This document shows positions 915 to 55,220 of a stretch of DNA of 64,000 nt, one piece after another. The stretch comes from a virus. The stretch covers positions 39,430 through 103,429 of the IMG/VR virus record IMGVR_UViG_3300030099_006395; one strand, 5' to 3'. The position numbers and the translations under genes are program-made. Within the stretch, counting starts at the first letter, position 1. Every line of letters starts with the position of its first letter. Under the pieces are notes generated by a model that saw only the letters and a list, made by a program, of their open reading frames with translations, ran no database searches and had not been told where the DNA came from.

Positions 915-1245
915 ATTAGATAAAACAGATAGTAAAGTAATACATTCAAATGAAACATATGATGTTATAGATAATACAAATCTAAATAATCTTATAGTTT
1001 CAAAAACTATATTACATGAGGGAAAAGAAACTGGTGGTCACAATCACAAAGGACAAGAAGAAGTTTATATATTTACAGAGGGTTCTGGTGTGATGCAAAT
1101 AGATGATGAAAAGTTTTTAGTTACGAAAGGTGATATAGTATTAATACCAGATGGAGCATTCCATAAAGTATTTAACACAAGTAACTATAAGGCAAACAAT
1201 CCTTTAATATTTGTATGTGTATTTGATGGTGGGAGAAATCATTAA
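904..1245 (+). CDS. Small cupin-domain protein
   Basis: I use ATG 904, preceded by AAGGA, rather than the longer frame from 856. The 113-residue product carries both cupin motifs: GGHNHKGQEEVYIFTEG (G..H.H....E......G, the metal ligands) and a second element around PDGAFHKV. Small single-domain cupins are beta barrels that bind a metal and act as isomerases, epimerases or sugar-binding enzymes. In a phage with a large sugar cluster a carbohydrate role is possible but not shown. It overlaps the Mom-like gene that follows. Confidence 0.75.
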   Translation: MKIKLDKTDSKVIHSNETYDVIDNTNLNNLIVSKTILHEGKETGGHNHKGQEEVYIFTEGSGVMQIDDEKFLVTKGDIVLIPDGAFHKVFNTSNYKANNPLIFVCVFDGGRNH

Positions 1246-1870
1246 AGTATCTGATTTTATAATAGAACCTGTACCTCGTAGTGCTATTCAATCATTTGTA
1301 CATAAATGGCATTATTCACATGATACTAATGGTGTACAACAAACACAATGTTTTGCTTTGTTTGATGACAATAGAATGATAGGTGCTATGATATATGCTT
1401 TACCATCCATGAAATCAACAGCAGCAAAATATAATCCAGATAATCCTGATAGGTGTTGGGAGTTACGAAGATTATGTTGTATTGATGATACACCAACAAA
1501 CACAGAAAGTTATTTTATAGGGCAGACTTTAAGGTGGATAAGACAAAATACTGATATAGAAGTTATTGTATCTTATGCTGATTTAGAACAAGGGCATGAA
1601 GGAGTCATTTATAAAGCCACTAACTTTCATTATTTAGGCCAAAGTGGTGGTGGTAGAAATTTAATGGTAGATGGAAAAAAGTTTCACGCTAGGTCTTTAA
1701 ATCAAAAAGAAAAACCCTATGGTAGGGATTTAAAAAGAAGATGGGAAAACAAAGAGGGGCATAGTTTTTGGGATTCAAAACAAGATATGTATTTTGTAAA
1801 TACAAAACCAAAAAATATCTATGTTTATTACTTAAATAAAAAAATAAAAAAGAAATTACTTAAAAAATGA
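1211..1870 (+). CDS. Mom-like (GNAT-fold) DNA-modification family protein, copy 1
   Basis: A central segment VSYADLEQGHEGVIYKATNFHYLG and an N-terminal HKWHYSHDTNG match the pattern repeated in the genes at 12767 and 53911. I recognise this pattern from the phage Mu Mom family, GNAT-related proteins that add a carbamoylmethyl group to adenine and protect DNA from restriction. The start is uncertain: ATG 1211, ATG 1226, or an ATT at 1241 which alone has a well-spaced GGGAG upstream. All overlap the cupin gene end. The C-terminus is very basic (IKKKLLKK). Family placement is moderate; the substrate is unknown. Confidence 0.55.
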   Translation: MYVYLMVGEIIKVSDFIIEPVPRSAIQSFVHKWHYSHDTNGVQQTQCFALFDDNRMIGAMIYALPSMKSTAAKYNPDNPDRCWELRRLCCIDDTPTNTESYFIGQTLRWIRQNTDIEVIVSYADLEQGHEGVIYKATNFHYLGQSGGGRNLMVDGKKFHARSLNQKEKPYGRDLKRRWENKEGHSFWDSKQDMYFVNTKPKNIYVYYLNKKIKKKLLKK

Positions 1871-12573: not shown

Positions 12574-12786
12574 ATGAATAAATTATTAATGGCAGCTATT
12601 GATAGTTACCAAGCACAAAAAACAGAAGCACTAGCTCATTTGGATTTATTGTTCAATGATGCCACAATGATAGGTGAACACACAGATTTAACAGCTGAAG
12701 TAAAAAAATGGACAATGAGTTTAGCAGAAGCTGAAGGTTGTTTAAAAGTATTGGATACACATTTTTATGTCGGTAAATCCAAGTAA
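12574..12786 (+). CDS. Small helical hypothetical protein, 70 aa
   Basis: ATG 12574 with GGGGAAAA upstream is preferred to 12553. The sequence is almost all helix-forming (SYQAQKTEALAHLDLLFNDA, WTMSLAEAEGCLKVL), suggesting a small coiled or bundled protein. No family recognised. Its end overlaps the next gene's start by 20 bases. Confidence 0.55.
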   Translation: MNKLLMAAIDSYQAQKTEALAHLDLLFNDATMIGEHTDLTAEVKKWTMSLAEAEGCLKVLDTHFYVGKSK

Positions 12787-13522
12787 AATAACCATAAGAG
12801 AAATCTCAAAGAAGATAGCCAAAGATATGATTGTAAAAAATCATTACAGTCACAAGTGGACAAGTTGTAGATACGCTTTAGGTATATTTTATGAAACAGA
12901 TAACCAACACGCATTCTTTGATGAGAAGGATGAGAAGTTAGCTGGTGTGGCTATCTATGGTTATCCTGTTGGAAGAAGTGCTCCTAAATCTATCTCACCT
13001 GAATTAAAGGAAGAAGAAGTATTAGAGTTGACAAGGTTATTTATCTTTGATGATTATGGTAAGAATACAGAAAGTGTGGTTTTATCTAAAACATTTAATT
13101 GGTTAAAGGAAAACGCTAGTGAGATAAAAGTATTGGTAAGTTATTCAGACCCAGAACAAGGACACTTGGGTATTATTTATCAAGCTACGAATTGGATATA
13201 TCAAGGTAATAGTATAAGGTTAATGCCTAACTACGCTATACGACTTACAGAAGATGGTACTTGGATGCACTCACGAAATGTAACAACAAAGTTTGGTTCT
13301 CATAACCTTGAGAAACTAAAGAAAAGAATCGGACACACATTTTGGAGAAAGGAAGAACCTGAAAAACACAGATATTTGTATTTGTTATGTGGTAAGAAAG
13401 ATAAGAAAAAGATTATGAATACATTGATACATAAACCTAAGCCTTATCCAAAAGATGCTTATCAATTTTATCCAGAGATACAAAAGATTGAAGTAACTTC
13501 AAAGGAAAAATTTTATGAATAG
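12767..13522 (+). CDS. Mom-like (GNAT-fold) DNA-modification family protein, copy 2
   Basis: A 251-residue protein with KNHYSHKWTSCRYALGIFY, GVAIYGYPVGR, ELTRLFI and VSYSDPEQGHLGIIYQATNW in the order seen in Mu Mom relatives. A conserved extension follows: IGHTFWRKEEPEKHRYLYLL, then KPYPK. Copy 3 at 53911 has the same extension almost residue for residue, so these two are close paralogues, while copy 1 is more distant. Predicted role: acyl-type modification of DNA bases to resist restriction. Inference from family only. Confidence 0.6.
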   Translation: MSVNPSKITIREISKKIAKDMIVKNHYSHKWTSCRYALGIFYETDNQHAFFDEKDEKLAGVAIYGYPVGRSAPKSISPELKEEEVLELTRLFIFDDYGKNTESVVLSKTFNWLKENASEIKVLVSYSDPEQGHLGIIYQATNWIYQGNSIRLMPNYAIRLTEDGTWMHSRNVTTKFGSHNLEKLKKRIGHTFWRKEEPEKHRYLYLLCGKKDKKKIMNTLIHKPKPYPKDAYQFYPEIQKIEVTSKEKFYE

Positions 13523-45414: not shown

Positions 45415-45507
45415 ATGATATTAGAGTTATTATTCAATCCATTCGCGTGTGTAATGTGGTTTTGGTTGGGCGTTTTCGTCTGGAGTTGGTTATCTACCGC
45501 GAATTAA
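45415..45507 (+). CDS. 30-residue hydrophobic membrane peptide
   Basis: ATG 45415 after AAAGGAGTATGCTT, directly behind a strong class A promoter with TGTTACA repeats. The product ILELLFNPFACVMWFWLGVF continues VWSWLSTAN, one Trp-rich membrane span. Toxin-like and holin-like small peptides look like this; function is unknown. Too short for ordinary gene finders but with complete expression signals. Confidence 0.55.
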   Translation: MILELLFNPFACVMWFWLGVFVWSWLSTAN

Positions 45508-45540
45508 TGTAAAAAAAACGTCTTTTTTTGTAAAAAAACG

Positions 45541-45570
45541 TTGACTCATATGGCTTTTTCGCCGTATATT
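45541..45570 (+). promoter_or_regulatory. Class A promoter of the structured RNA
   Basis: AAAAAACGTTGACT with TTGACT 45541-45546, the 18-bp spacer CATATGGCTTTTTCGCCG and TATATT 45565-45570, then GTAGTATAAG. Predicted transcription start about 45577. No ribosome site or start codon follows at usual distance. Confidence 0.85.
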
Positions 45571-45576
45571 GTAGTA

Positions 45577-46001
45577 TAAGATTTTTGAAATGAAAGAATT
45601 AGTGGGAGTACAAGGGGTATAATTCCCGACGGGGGCATACTTACTTAAAGAGAGACAATACACTAGCGTAACCCACCTCTCGCCCACGGCTAGTTTAAAG
45701 GTAAATGACGGGTAGTTACTCTATAAGAGCCTATGTATTTACCACTTTTGCGGGGTAAGAATCAAGAGAGATTCGTTATACTACCAGTATAAAGGGTGTG
45801 GGGCAGTTCCACAACCCCGCTCAACGAGAGAAACCTGCATACTTGAGTAAGGTGAGAATATTTCTCCGAACCACGTTTCGTTAATATTCATACCTATCAC
45901 CATACTTCAGTCCCTCCAGGTTCTCTCCTCACACTTGATCATGGGTGTATTATACGCTCTAGGGTGTCAGTTTTACTCCTTTCTCTGGCACCCTTTTTTT
46001 T
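45577..46001 (+). ncRNA. Candidate novel structured non-coding RNA, about 425 nt
   Basis: Promoter, no reading frame, then an intrinsic terminator. Helices I can write down: CTAGCGT 45663-45669 with AC(G)GCTAG 45686-45693; GGTAAAT 45700-45706 with ATTTACC 45737-45743, enclosing CTC/GAG 45719-45729; GCGGGGT 45750-45756 with ACCCCGC 45814-45820, enclosing three hairpins (45759-45774, 45777-45791, 45797-45813). Next, GAGAGAAACCTG 45826-45837 pairs with CAGGTTCTCTC 45917-45927 around GGTGA/TCACC, GAATATT/AATATTC (45856-45889) and CGAA/TTCG. G+C is clearly higher than in flanking genes. It does not show the RNase P, tmRNA or 6S landmarks I know. Located between the VWA gene and the AAA+ gene. Confidence 0.8.
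45962..46001 (+). terminator. Intrinsic terminator of the structured RNA
   Basis: GGGTGTCAG (45962-45970) pairs with CTGGCACCC (45985-45993, one G-U), 14-base loop, then eight T. Confidence 0.9.
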
Positions 46002-46069: not shown

Positions 46070-46104
46070 TGATCGTAAGTTAAATGATAAAAAAAGGAGT
46101 ATTT

Positions 46105-47295
46105 ATGTCAAAACAAATTTTAACCCCCGATGTTGTAGTGAGGATAGAAAAGTCCGGTAATCGTTACAACGCGTGGGATACTGATGGTAATAAACGAACA
46201 TCAGAGATTACATCTGGTTGTAGGAAGAACGCCTTTAATGGTGGTTATCTATTAGGTAGGTTTCCTTCTACTGCCTCTAAATCTGGTTTCGCGTGGAGGA
46301 AAGTTACTGATTCTGTTGTAGAAACAGCAACTCCTGTCGTGGATAATTCCTCAATAGAGGTACCGACCGACCACGCTGAAGTTCTTAATTTTATACACTC
46401 TTCTTACTCTTTAAAACCAAAGATGTTAATGATGTCAGAACTTAAATGGAAGTATCTGATTCGTTCTGGTGTTAGAGGTAAGAATATTATGATGACAGGC
46501 CCTGCGGGTTGTGGTAAGACTATGGCAGCTAAGTCATTGGTTAACTCACTTGATAGGCCTGACTATTACTTCAATTTAGGAGCGACACAAGATCCTCGTT
46601 CTACTCTGATTGGTAATACTCACTTCGATTCAAAGAAGGGTACTTACTTTTCAGAATCTCTCTTCGTGAAAGCGATTCAAACACCAAACGCCGTGATACT
46701 ATTAGATGAGTTATCAAGGGCTCACCCAGACGCATGGAATATCTTAATGACAGTTCTCGACTATGGGCAAAGATATTTAAGGTTGGATGAAGCTAGTGGG
46801 GCTGATACTATTAAGGTTGCAGATGGTGTTACTTTCGTTGCCACAGCAAACATTGGTAATGAGTATACTTCTACTAGAGTTATGGATAAGGCCCTCATGG
46901 ATAGGTTCACTATTGTTGAGATGGATGTACTAACAGAAGAGGACGAGAACTCTCTTCTTAATATGATGTTTCCTTCGGTTGACTCTGTACTACTAGGTAA
47001 TGTGGCTAAGATAGCGACACTAACAAGAACCGAGTCTGGTAGTGAAACAGCTAGGATTACTAGTGGTATTAGTACGAGAACCACGGTAGAGTTATGTGGG
47101 TTACTATTCGATGGCTTCTCATTACAAGAAGCGGCTGAGGTCAGTATCTATCCCCAGTATGATAACACTGGTGGGGTAGACAGCGAGAGAACCTTTGTGA
47201 AGCAGATAGTCCAAAAGTTCTGTGATGACGGCTCAAGCGATGACTTGTTCAATGAGGACGAGATGGCTGAGGCGACAGAGGACACTACCTACTAA
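46105..47295 (+). CDS. CobS/MoxR-like AAA+ ATPase
   Basis: ATG 46105 after AAAAAAGGAG (better than 46084). The 396-residue protein has a ~90-residue basic N-domain, Walker A GPAGCGKTMAAKSL (~132), Walker B VILLDELSRAHPDAWN (~198), sensor FVATANIGNEYTSTRVMDKALMDRF with the arginine finger (~268), and a helical end. This is the CobS/MoxR/NirQ group; T4-like marine phages carry relatives annotated cobS. These ATPases typically work with a VWA-domain partner, here perhaps the protein at 40534. Uses few rare bases; G+C slightly higher than neighbours. Has a TGTTACA-type promoter. Confidence 0.87.
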   Translation: MSKQILTPDVVVRIEKSGNRYNAWDTDGNKRTSEITSGCRKNAFNGGYLLGRFPSTASKSGFAWRKVTDSVVETATPVVDNSSIEVPTDHAEVLNFIHSSYSLKPKMLMMSELKWKYLIRSGVRGKNIMMTGPAGCGKTMAAKSLVNSLDRPDYYFNLGATQDPRSTLIGNTHFDSKKGTYFSESLFVKAIQTPNAVILLDELSRAHPDAWNILMTVLDYGQRYLRLDEASGADTIKVADGVTFVATANIGNEYTSTRVMDKALMDRFTIVEMDVLTEEDENSLLNMMFPSVDSVLLGNVAKIATLTRTESGSETARITSGISTRTTVELCGLLFDGFSLQEAAEVSIYPQYDNTGGVDSERTFVKQIVQKFCDDGSSDDLFNEDEMAEATEDTTY

Positions 47296-52614: not shown

Positions 52615-52957
52615 GGGGTCGACATGGAATCGATTGCTAGATTTTTGACATAAAGTGCAAGTAGCGTGATTCACTCACGAATCAAACATACGATAATCGG
52701 CAACGAATATCAATACATGGCAGTAGCGTAGTCTACTTCCCATCACTCCTTGATTTCTGATAGAGGATAAAGTGGTGTCATATCAGAAGAACCTCCTTTA
52801 TGAATGGGTTGGGAGAATACTAATTTACATTCCATCTTTGAGCAAACAGATGTAAAACAGTAATCTGACTTTGTTAATAAGAAAGAAATTAACTAAACTT
52901 GTAAATGACTTTATGTAGGAAACTGGTAAGACGGGGGTTCGAATCCCCCCGACTCCA
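52615..52957 (+). ncRNA. ssrA: Transfer-messenger RNA (tmRNA)
   Basis: 5' GGGGTCG (52615-52621) pairs with 3' CGACTCC (52950-52956), giving a G3-U70 pair, the alanine identity element. The T-arm is GGGGG-TTCGAAT-CCCCC (52933-52949), discriminator A. The tag reading frame starts with GGC at 52699 and reads G-N-E-Y-Q-Y-M-A-V-A, stop TAG at 52729-52731. With the charged Ala the peptide would be AGNEYQYMAVA. Gly as first encoded residue resembles Bacteroidota tags as I remember; the usual -LAA end is -AVA. It rescues stalled ribosomes and tags products for proteolysis. Rare in phages. Confidence 0.93.
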
Positions 52958-53003: not shown

Positions 53004-53924
53004 ATGAATAATATTGGTTATGCATGTATTAACATGAATCTATCTAAATGTAAACCGAAGATTACTACTAATCGTAGTATGATAAAAAGAACATTTACAG
53101 AAAAAGGTTTACCATACGCATCTGAACTAGCGTTACAAAATTGTAAAGACTTACTTACAATACTCAAGTGGAACAAAGCTAATGGTATTAATTTCTTTCG
53201 TATGTCTTCAGACCTTATACCATGGGCTTCTGAATACAAGTTGGATGATTTACCAGACCATTGGGATATAGTAGCTACATTGGGTGAATGTGGTAAGTTT
53301 GCTGAAGAGAATAATATTCGTATTACATCTCATCCTGGTCCTTTCAATGTTCTTACCTCACCACATGAACATGTAGTTGAGAATTGTATCAAAGACTTGT
53401 CTATACATGGTGAAGTGTTTGACATGATGGGTTTATCTCGTACACCATACAACAAGATTAATATACATATTGGTGGTGCTTATGGTGACAAGGTATCAGC
53501 TATGGAACGATTCTGTAAAAACTTTCATCGTCTACCAGATTCAGTTAAGTCTCGTCTTACGGTTGAGAATGATGACAAGGCTTCTATGTATTCTGTCGTT
53601 GATTTGTATGAGGGTGTATACAAGGTTATAGGTATACCGATTGTATTTGATTACCATCACCATAGATTCTGTACAGGTGGACTGACAGAAGAAGATGCAC
53701 TTGAAGTTGCTATATCTACTTGGCCTACTGACATTGTACCTGTTGTACACTATTCAGAGTCTCGTAGTAAAGAACAACTAGATGAGTCTATTAGACCACA
53801 AGCACATTCAGATTATGTACTTGACTATATTGACACCTATGGTAATAGAGTTGATATTATGATAGAAGCAAAAGCCAAAGAGTTGGCTGTTATGAAATAC
53901 AAAGAGTTACATGGATTATGTTAA
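53004..53924 (+). CDS. uvsE: UV-damage endonuclease UvdE/UvsE
   Basis: A 306-residue TIM-barrel enzyme: IGYACINMNL, FFRMSSDLIPWAS, ITSHPGPFNVL, INIHIGGAYGDKVSAMERF, LTVENDDKASMYS, IPIVFDYHHHRFC and VVHYSESRS. His and Glu metal ligands are in place. It nicks DNA 5' of UV photoproducts, protecting the phage genome in sunlit water. Start ATG 53004 (a longer frame from 52905 would run into the tmRNA). Its promoter abuts the ATG, implying leaderless translation. The Mom-like gene overlaps its end by 14 bases. Confidence 0.92.
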   Translation: MNNIGYACINMNLSKCKPKITTNRSMIKRTFTEKGLPYASELALQNCKDLLTILKWNKANGINFFRMSSDLIPWASEYKLDDLPDHWDIVATLGECGKFAEENNIRITSHPGPFNVLTSPHEHVVENCIKDLSIHGEVFDMMGLSRTPYNKINIHIGGAYGDKVSAMERFCKNFHRLPDSVKSRLTVENDDKASMYSVVDLYEGVYKVIGIPIVFDYHHHRFCTGGLTEEDALEVAISTWPTDIVPVVHYSESRSKEQLDESIRPQAHSDYVLDYIDTYGNRVDIMIEAKAKELAVMKYKELHGLC

Positions 53925-54633
53925 TACTAATAAATTAATAGTAAGAGAAGTTACAAAGTCTATAGCTAAAAAGATGGTAGTTAAATATCATTACTCTCAC
54001 CTATGGACAAAGTGTTCTGTTGCATTAGGATTATTTTATAACACAGGTAAACAACATTCTTTCTTTGATGAAGAAGAAGAAAAGCTTATCGGTGTTATAA
54101 TATATGGTGACCCGATTGGTAGACATAGTGGTGGTTCTATATCAGAGTTATTAGATAGAACTGATGTATATGAATTAACAAGGTTATATATCCACGATGG
54201 TTATGGTAGTAATATTGAGAGTTGGTTTATCTCTCAATCTTTTAAATGGTTGAAAGAGAATACAAACATCAAGGCTTTGATATCATACGCAGACCCAAAA
54301 GAAGGACATGCTGGTACAATCTACCAAGCCACTAATTGGATATATCAAGGTAATAGTATTAGACCAAATGATACATATAGTTTTAAATTGAAACCAGACG
54401 ATGAGTGGATACATGGAAGAACATTGGCTAATACATATAAGACAAATGATATAGAGAAGTTAAAGAAAAAAATTGGACATACCTTTTGGTATAGAGTAGA
54501 ACCGTTGAAACATCGGTATGTATATCTACTAAAGAATAAAAGGAAGTTAATGAAACACTTAAAGCATCCTATTAAGCCATATCCGAAGGCGGATGATGTA
54601 GATGATTTAAAAGTAACAAAGGTGGTGGTATGA
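53911..54633 (+). CDS. Mom-like (GNAT-fold) DNA-modification family protein, copy 3
   Basis: A 240-residue close relative of the 12767 protein: KYHYSHLWTKCSVALGLFY, GVIIYGDPIGRHSGG, YELTRLYIHDGYG, LISYADPKEGHAGTIYQATNWIYQGNSIR, IGHTFWYRVEPLKHRYVYLL and KPYPK near the end. Shared residues run along nearly the whole length. Predicted to modify DNA bases in the manner of Mu Mom. It lies between uvsE and a fourth, more distant copy, in what may be a DNA protection unit. Confidence 0.6.
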   Translation: MDYVNTNKLIVREVTKSIAKKMVVKYHYSHLWTKCSVALGLFYNTGKQHSFFDEEEEKLIGVIIYGDPIGRHSGGSISELLDRTDVYELTRLYIHDGYGSNIESWFISQSFKWLKENTNIKALISYADPKEGHAGTIYQATNWIYQGNSIRPNDTYSFKLKPDDEWIHGRTLANTYKTNDIEKLKKKIGHTFWYRVEPLKHRYVYLLKNKRKLMKHLKHPIKPYPKADDVDDLKVTKVVV

Positions 54634-55220
54634 TAAGATTGGAGTTGGTACAATATCATATGCAAAAGTTACAGGTAAAAAGAATAATAGAGAAACATCA
54701 TTCTTATGTGCCATCTAATCGTTCAGTAGGCAGAAGAATAGATTGGTTAATATATCATTCAGAACATACTAATAACTTTGGTATAGAAGAACCTGTTGGT
54801 ATGGTTGGTATTGGTTCATCAGTATATCCACCACCCAAAGACATCTTGCGTTATGTAGGAATGAGTAAATCCGTATATAAGGATAACTTTAATTCGTTTG
54901 CTAACAACTGGCGCTACTGCCTAGTCAAGTCAATACCGAACTTGGGAAGTCAAGTTTTAAAACAACTTCGGGAACAGGGCTTGCTTCAATGGAAATCCAA
55001 ATACGGCGATGACTTGAAATATCTAATCACCTTTGTCGGTGGTGGTAATAACGGAGCAGTATACAAAGCTGACAATTGGAAACATGTAGGATACACAGCA
55101 GGATTACCTGAACATAAAAGTAGTTCAATGAAATGGGATAACAAAGATAAGTTAAAAGAACTATTTGTTAAACCAACAGGAGAAAATAAAAAAATGATAT
55201 TTATAAAGGAGATTAAATGA
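54630..55220 (+). CDS. Mom-like/GNAT-fold protein, copy 4 (divergent)
   Basis: A 196-residue protein with IIEKHHSYVPSNRSVGRRIDWLIYH at the N-terminus and FVGGGNNGAVYKADNWKHVGYTAGLPEHKSS near the end, which matches the G-x-I-Y-x-A-x-N-W-x-x-x-G block of the other copies. The middle is different, with NWRYCLVKSIPNLGSQVLKQL in place of ELTRL. Four-base overlap with copy 3. Function inferred from family only. Confidence 0.5.
   Translation: MIRLELVQYHMQKLQVKRIIEKHHSYVPSNRSVGRRIDWLIYHSEHTNNFGIEEPVGMVGIGSSVYPPPKDILRYVGMSKSVYKDNFNSFANNWRYCLVKSIPNLGSQVLKQLREQGLLQWKSKYGDDLKYLITFVGGGNNGAVYKADNWKHVGYTAGLPEHKSSSMKWDNKDKLKELFVKPTGENKKMIFIKEIK

What the first reader, a model, noticed from the sequence alone, without database searches (positions are those of the whole stretch)
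45541..46001. Probable new structured RNA of about 425 nt with its own promoter and terminator
Seen: strong class A promoter, no reading frame, many mutually compatible helices, including a 7-bp perfect GCGGGGT/ACCCCGC closing three hairpins (a four-way junction) and an 11-bp helix closing a nested arm, then a perfect intrinsic terminator. G+C is far above the flanks. Inference: a large phage non-coding RNA, comparable in spirit to GOLLD or ROOL but not recognised by me as any known class.
Basis: partly seen in the sequence, partly recalled or inferred. Interest (0 to 1): 0.92.

Follow-up and report, generated by a model that had tools for sequence, protein, structure and literature searches.

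The report
Phage tRNA-Gly mimic serving Mom
A marine phage makes a small RNA that looks like a glycine tRNA stripped of the features needed for protein synthesis, and in dozens of unrelated phages the same RNA accompanies Mom, the enzyme that attaches a glycine-derived group to DNA, so it is probably a dedicated glycine carrier for DNA modification.

Summary
The transcription unit is real: phage-type promoter, no ORF, terminator, significant fold. It is not one giant GOLLD/ROOL-like RNA but a mosaic. Its "four-way junction" (45750-45821) is a complete tRNA cloverleaf, seen in 37 distinct sequences from diverse phages (16 of 22 pairs with two-sided changes; covariation 0.766 vs 0.166 shuffled). 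Bacterial GlyRS identity elements are kept (G1-C72, C2-G71, U73, anticodon NCC), while U33, the D-loop GG and the TΨC loop are lost; Rfam and ARAGORN miss it. Outside the window's lineage all 33 copies sit at a mom gene (a Mom-seeded search gives 22 of 22 untruncated loci). In the window's lineage the RNA is free-standing, sometimes in tandem; the window genome encodes three Mom paralogs. Relatives carry intermediates (recognisable tRNA-Gly just upstream of mom). A 2025 meeting report (PMC12908700) states that Mu Mom needs tRNAGly to transfer a glycyl group. Best reading: a translation-incompetent tRNA-Gly paralog that GlyRS charges as dedicated glycyl donor for Mom. Charging and donation are inferred. 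A second covarying element (45826-45932) has unknown function. The dedicated RNA appears new; Mom's use of tRNAGly is not.

The parts
45541..45579 (+). phage promoter TTGACT-18-TATATT with extended motif TATATTGTAGTATAA
45600..45749 (+). M0: 5' part of the transcript, no significant structure, no homologue seen in the fetched loci
   Evidence: z -1.08; comparison
45750..45821 (+). M1: tRNA-Gly-like cloverleaf (acceptor 45750-45756/45814-45820, D-arm 45759-45774, anticodon arm 45776-45792 with N34-C35-C36, T-arm 45797-45813, discriminator U at 45821)
   Evidence: (92.5 bits)
45826..45932 (+). M2: second covarying element; helix 45826-45837/45917-45927, invariant internal loop CAU (45838-45840) / CCCUC (45912-45916), variable inner arm
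45961..46001 (+). intrinsic terminator; loop TTTTACTCCTTTCT complementary to the phage Shine-Dalgarno
12767..13522 (+). Mom paralog (PF25680, E 4e-52), proposed partner of M1 in trans; catalytic-Ser equivalent S103
53911..54633 (+). Mom paralog (PF25680, E 6e-51), proposed partner; S104
1211..1870 (+). Mom paralog (PF25680, E 1e-39), proposed partner; S100; start codon uncertain

Best explanation
45750-45821 encodes a tRNA-Gly-derived RNA that no longer serves translation. Host glycyl-tRNA synthetase would recognise its preserved identity elements and charge it with glycine (after CCA addition). Mom would take the glycyl group from this RNA and build the N6-(glycinamide) adenine that shields phage DNA from restriction. 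Because the RNA lacks a conserved U33, the canonical T-loop and the D-loop GG, it should stay out of EF-Tu and the ribosome, giving the phage a private glycine supply that does not compete with protein synthesis. In the window it is made in trans from its own promoter within a mosaic stable-RNA unit (M0-M1-M2-terminator). Shown: cloverleaf with covariation, Gly identity elements, loss of translation features, linkage to mom. Inferred: transcription, processing, glycylation, donation to Mom.
For: Covariation of a full cloverleaf in 36 sequences. Gly identity elements invariant while U33 and the loops are not canonical. 33 of 33 copies outside the window's lineage adjoin mom; 22 of 22 untruncated loci in the Mom-seeded scan. 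At least four deep Mom clades. Three Moms in the window genome. Free-standing and tandem copies elsewhere. tRNA-Gly intermediates just upstream of mom that ordinary tRNA-Gly genes do not resemble. Independent report that Mu Mom needs tRNAGly for glycyl transfer (PMC12908700).
Against: No transcript, charging or enzyme data for this RNA. Many Mom phages lack it, and G020 and G023 have Mom without it, so it is not obligatory. CCA is encoded in only 12 of 37. The fold of Mom resembles CoA-using GNATs more than aminoacyl-tRNA transferases. One RNA would serve three Moms in the window.
Confidence: 0.8

Rival explanations
1. The cloverleaf is a cis-acting element of mom mRNA (stability, 3'-end processing or translational control) that was carried off to another site in the window's lineage.
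For: In most phages it overlaps or abuts the 3' end of mom, and Mu mom expression is tightly controlled because Mom is toxic (PMC4461284).
Against: Free-standing behind its own promoter about 8.2 kb from the nearest mom in the window, in tandem copies in L010 and G054, upstream of mom in L152, L237 and L238. A cis role does not explain why glycine identity elements are the invariant bases.
Confidence: 0.07
2. It is a decoy or substitute tRNA-Gly against host defence (for example anticodon nucleases) or a regulator of the host GlyRS/tRNA-Gly pool, with mom merely a neighbouring counter-defence gene.
For: Phage tRNAs can counter tRNA-cleaving defences (own knowledge). The window lineage's island also hosts tRNAs and the window phage has its own tmRNA and tRNA-Arg.
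Against: A near-exclusive partnership with one gene family over several deep Mom clades is not expected of a general decoy, and only glycine-type copies are seen. Mom itself uses a glycyl group.
Confidence: 0.08
3. An ordinary but degenerate phage tRNA-Gly that still decodes glycine codons.
For: Anticodon NCC and cloverleaf. Relatives with a canonical T-loop are called tRNA-Gly by ARAGORN.
Against: U33 missing in about half, 8-nt anticodon loops in three, no TΨC loop and no D-loop GG in the main family, yet strict conservation and compensatory change; ARAGORN and Rfam do not recognise it.
Confidence: 0.03
4. 45577-46000 functions as one large structured RNA (GOLLD/ROOL-like), M1 being just a domain of it.
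For: One promoter, one terminator, mutually compatible helices.
Against: Modules occur alone, duplicated or replaced in relatives. No Rfam match. M0 shows no excess structure.
Confidence: 0.02

Closest known systems
tRNA-Gly (RF00005 kind)
   Same: 7-bp acceptor, D, anticodon and T arms, GCGG start, U73, anticodon NCC
   Different: No D-loop GG, no TΨC loop, no conserved U33; not matched by Rfam or ARAGORN; linked to mom
Phage Mu Mom, reported to depend on tRNAGly (PMC12908700, meeting report)
   Same: Same enzyme family (PF25680); glycyl group taken from tRNAGly
   Different: Mu has no match to the RNA model and presumably uses host tRNAGly; here a dedicated RNA is co-encoded
Non-translational tRNA-Gly of Staphylococcus peptidoglycan synthesis (own knowledge)
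   Same: tRNA-Gly paralogs with altered D- and T-loops, charged by GlyRS, kept from translation, donors for a non-ribosomal transferase
   Different: Cellular genes, cell-wall target, different loop sequences; no homology was tested
GOLLD / ROOL / manA phage-associated RNAs
   Same: Phage stable-RNA loci; a relative (L006) has a manA-like RNA in the same island (RF01745, E 2.9e-7, below gathering score)
   Different: The window RNA matches none of them

Membership tests
tRNA (RF00005) | Cloverleaf with 7-bp acceptor, three arms and discriminator | tested here: met
tRNA (RF00005) | Canonical T-loop (TTCRANY) and D-loop GG | tested here: not met
   GGCAGTT and AAGAGA in all 36 aligned; canonical T-loop only in the related L236-L240. 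The search pattern fixed parts of both loops
tRNA (RF00005) | U33 before the anticodon, 7-nt anticodon loop | tested here: not met
   U33 in 16 of 33; three copies with 8-nt loops
tRNA (RF00005) | Recognised by the Rfam model or ARAGORN | tested here: not met
glycine-accepting RNA (GlyRS substrate) | Bacterial identity set G1-C72, C2-G71, G3-C70, U73, C35, C36 | tested here: met
   36/36 for all but G3-C70 (30/36); the set itself is from established knowledge
glycine-accepting RNA (GlyRS substrate) | Aminoacylation with glycine | not testable with these tools
   needs an in-vitro charging assay
Mom system (PF25680) | Mom gene in the same genome | tested here: met
   three paralogs, E 1e-39 to 4e-52
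Mom system (PF25680) | Catalytic serine of Mu Mom (S124) | tested here: met
   S100, S103, S104 in the window Moms
Mom system (PF25680) | Modified adenine in virion DNA | not testable with these tools
   needs LC-MS or nanopore data
GOLLD / ROOL / any other Rfam family | Covariance-model match | tested here: not met
Staphylococcal non-proteinogenic tRNA-Gly | Homology to those genes, weak EF-Tu binding, use by Fem transferases | not tested
   analogy from own knowledge only

The most novel reading that the evidence does not exclude
Phages evolved a dedicated, translation-incompetent tRNA (a glycyl-carrier RNA) as cofactor for a DNA-hypermodifying enzyme: an aminoacyl-RNA whose purpose is to decorate DNA, spread across several deep phage lineages and invisible to the tRNA finders used here.
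Probability: 0.78. Interest if true: 0.92.

Novelty: new variant of a known kind. Interest (0 to 1): 0.86.

Why it matters
The source of the group that Mom adds to DNA has long been uncertain: a 2021 review names glycyl-CoA as example (PMC7824862), a 2025 meeting report tRNAGly (PMC12908700). A covarying tRNA-Gly mimic that travels with mom supports the tRNA route from evolution, suggests that competition for Gly-tRNA between translation and DNA modification is a real constraint, gives a marker for Mom systems, and points to a class of non-translational tRNAs that the tRNA finders used here miss. It makes Mom's mechanism directly testable with natural enzyme-RNA pairs.

Tried and rejected
GOLLD/ROOL-like giant RNA: rejected, because modules are separable and Rfam is negative. 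suhB/mmgR hit (E 1.3): chance, driven by the terminator. DNA similarity of the whole region to named phages gave only short weak matches at promoter-like stretches; the cloverleaf alone finds nothing there. Fold comparison of Mom did not favour aminoacyl-tRNA transferases over CoA GNATs, so it is not used as support. The early literature searches missed the key meeting report; it was listed and read. M2 as a Mom-linked element: not supported, since the M2-bearing records G002, G004, G005, G006, G009, G011, G017 and G025 show no Mom (partial records).

Full report
OBSERVATION. The window is 64 kb of a 113-kb IMG/VR virus record. At 45541-46001 there is a promoter (TTGACT-18-TATATT) of a class repeated in this phage (TATATTNTAGTATAA, four exact copies; 17 hits with up to 2 mismatches against 5.8 expected), no relevant ORF, and a perfect 10-bp terminator. 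The + strand folds with z -3.27, the - strand with z -1.35. Rfam gives nothing there at gathering score, nor anything meaningful up to E = 5. The first 150 nt carry no excess structure (z -1.08).

MOSAIC. The AAA ATPase gene downstream (46084-47295; Pfam AAA_5) retrieved 80 related phage loci. The interval upstream of it varies by whole modules. The cloverleaf M1 is present in L003, L009, L010 (two copies in tandem), L018 and L019. Element M2 is in eleven loci counting the window. A manA-like RNA lies in L006 (RF01745, E 2.9e-7 but below gathering score), with similar sequence by eye in L004, L007 and L008. L018 has a real tRNA-Glu there. So the finding is an RNA island with swappable parts rather than one RNA.

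THE CLOVERLEAF. 45750-45821 reads as a tRNA: acceptor GCGGGGT/ACCCCGC, D-arm GAATC-AAGAGA-GATTC, anticodon arm TTATA-CTACCAG-TATAA, 4-nt variable region, T-arm TGTGG-GGCAGTT-CCACA, discriminator U, then CA. A pattern of its D- and T-loops was sought in viral contigs and in GTDB genomes. Among chance hits it gave 37 distinct sequences with the full cloverleaf, including Planctomycetes/Phycisphaerae MAGs. In 36 aligned sequences 97.1% of cells pair, 16 of 22 pairs change on both sides, and covariation is 0.766 against 0.166 in shuffles and at most 0.12 in slid registers. G1-C72, C2-G71, U73, C35 and C36 never change; G3-C70 holds in 30 of 36. These are the bacterial glycyl-tRNA synthetase identity elements (established knowledge). 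U33 is present in only 16 of 33 seven-nt loops, three copies have 8-nt anticodon loops, and the D-loop GG and TΨC loop are gone. Loop invariance in this set partly reflects the search pattern. Model-based searches, which do not demand the loops, recover variants with T-loops GGCGGTT and TTCGATT and related D-loops.

LINK TO MOM. In the other phages the element lies at the 3' end of a gene. Four such proteins match Pfam PF25680 Mom (E 3e-17 to 3e-44) and PHROG 1384 'Mom-like DNA modification'. An HMM built from Mom proteins shows Mom beside all 33 copies outside the window's lineage: in 32 the mom stop codon lies 8-191 nt after the RNA's first base, and in one (L152) the RNA is at the other end of the gene. 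A scan seeded with Mom of the L105 type returned 25 loci; all 22 not cut by a contig end have the RNA at that place. RNA-bearing Moms occupy at least four deep branches of the Mom tree.

IN THE WINDOW'S LINEAGE THE RNA IS UNLINKED. The window genome has three Mom genes, at window 1211-1870, 12767-13522 and 53911-54633, and one M1 copy, about 8.1 kb from the nearest mom. All three keep the serine whose mutation inactivates Mu Mom (S124A, PDB 8bv8). In 27 records of the lineage, Mom and model hits coincide (both 8, Mom only 2, RNA only 2, neither 15; Fisher p 0.0007). The count of RNA-bearing records leaves out the weak G011 hit (19.9 bits). The records are partial and related, so the p value is indicative only; with the derived form alone it is 0.047. 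Free-standing copies also occur in other phages that encode Mom (G032, G054 with two copies, G055).

INTERMEDIATES. L237 and L238 carry an ARAGORN-recognisable tRNA-Gly(UCC) immediately upstream of mom. L236-L240 score 52-62 bits with the model R1, while E. coli glyT/V/X/Y and T4 tRNA-Gly do not match it. The RNA is therefore most simply read as descending from a tRNA-Gly that progressively lost translation features; the direction is inferred.

MECHANISM. Mom makes a glycinamide-bearing adenine (Swinton 1983, title in the reference list of PMC4461284). A 2021 review names glycyl-CoA as a donor example (PMC7824862). A 2025 meeting report states that Mu adenine hypermodification depends on tRNAGly for transfer of a glycyl group (PMC12908700). 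I reached the glycyl-tRNA idea from the genomics (note) before finding that report. The dedicated RNA fits: chargeable by GlyRS, withheld from EF-Tu and ribosome, co-encoded with Mom. A chemically reasonable route (my inference) is glycyl transfer to N6, then attack of the free amine on C6, giving N6-CH2-CONH2. The CoA-pyrophosphate motif of typical GNATs (Q/R-x-x-G-x-G/A) is not visible in the Mom alignment after the strand carrying the invariant LxR (my reading), but the fold search still ranks CoA GNATs next after Mu Mom, so structure does not decide the donor.

LIMITS. Many Mom phages have no such RNA and would rely on ordinary tRNAGly. One RNA would serve three Moms in the window. CCA is encoded in 12 of 37. 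Expression, processing, charging and donation are untested. Literature coverage is limited to open-licence papers, so a description of the dedicated RNA elsewhere cannot be excluded.

M2. 45826-45932 is a second real element, confined to this lineage as far as seen (ten contigs match its motif in all viral contigs): 11 sequences, 22 two-sided cells, covariation 0.426 against 0.140 in shuffles, invariant internal loop CAU/CCCUC. It does not track Mom. Its function is open.

Noticed in passing
45961-45994; terminators throughout L003-L082: Terminator-like hairpins of this lineage repeatedly carry loops with (A/C)TCCTTT(C), complementary to the phage Shine-Dalgarno AAAGGAGT (50 such hairpins in 80 loci). 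Unexplained conserved anti-SD loop, also after the ATPase gene.
   Followed up: partly
45826-45932: M2: covarying element with invariant internal loop CAU/CCCUC and a variable inner arm, only in this phage lineage; function unknown.
   Followed up: partly
L006:4492-4701; also L004, L007, L008: manA-like RNA (RF01745, E 2.9e-7, below gathering score) occupies the same island in relatives.
   Followed up: partly
54630-55220: Gene directly after the third mom resembles DruA (PF14236, E 1.2e-5, just below cut-off) and weakly Mom-like PHROG 1384.
   Followed up: no
45581-45595 and 52641-52655: The ncRNA's 5' end (GATTTTTGAAATGAAAG) resembles a stretch of the phage's own tmRNA (GATTTTTGACATAAAG at 52641 ff.); the motif recurs at the 5' end of several relatives' islands.
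   Followed up: no
L020:4550-4652; L010:4180-4350: tRNA-like and tmRNA-5'-like sequences inside the islands that ARAGORN and Rfam do not call.
   Followed up: no
45416-45508 and L011:4540-4647, L052:4497-4595: Tiny ORF for a hydrophobic peptide (LFNPFxCVxWFWxG) with its own promoter next to the RNA, conserved in relatives.
   Followed up: no
L175, L176, L179, L181, L183, L185, L186, L192, L197, L201, L202: Planctomycetes and Phycisphaerae MAGs hold several mom+RNA copies per genome (four in VGYT01, three in JAAYCR01), perhaps prophages.
   Followed up: no
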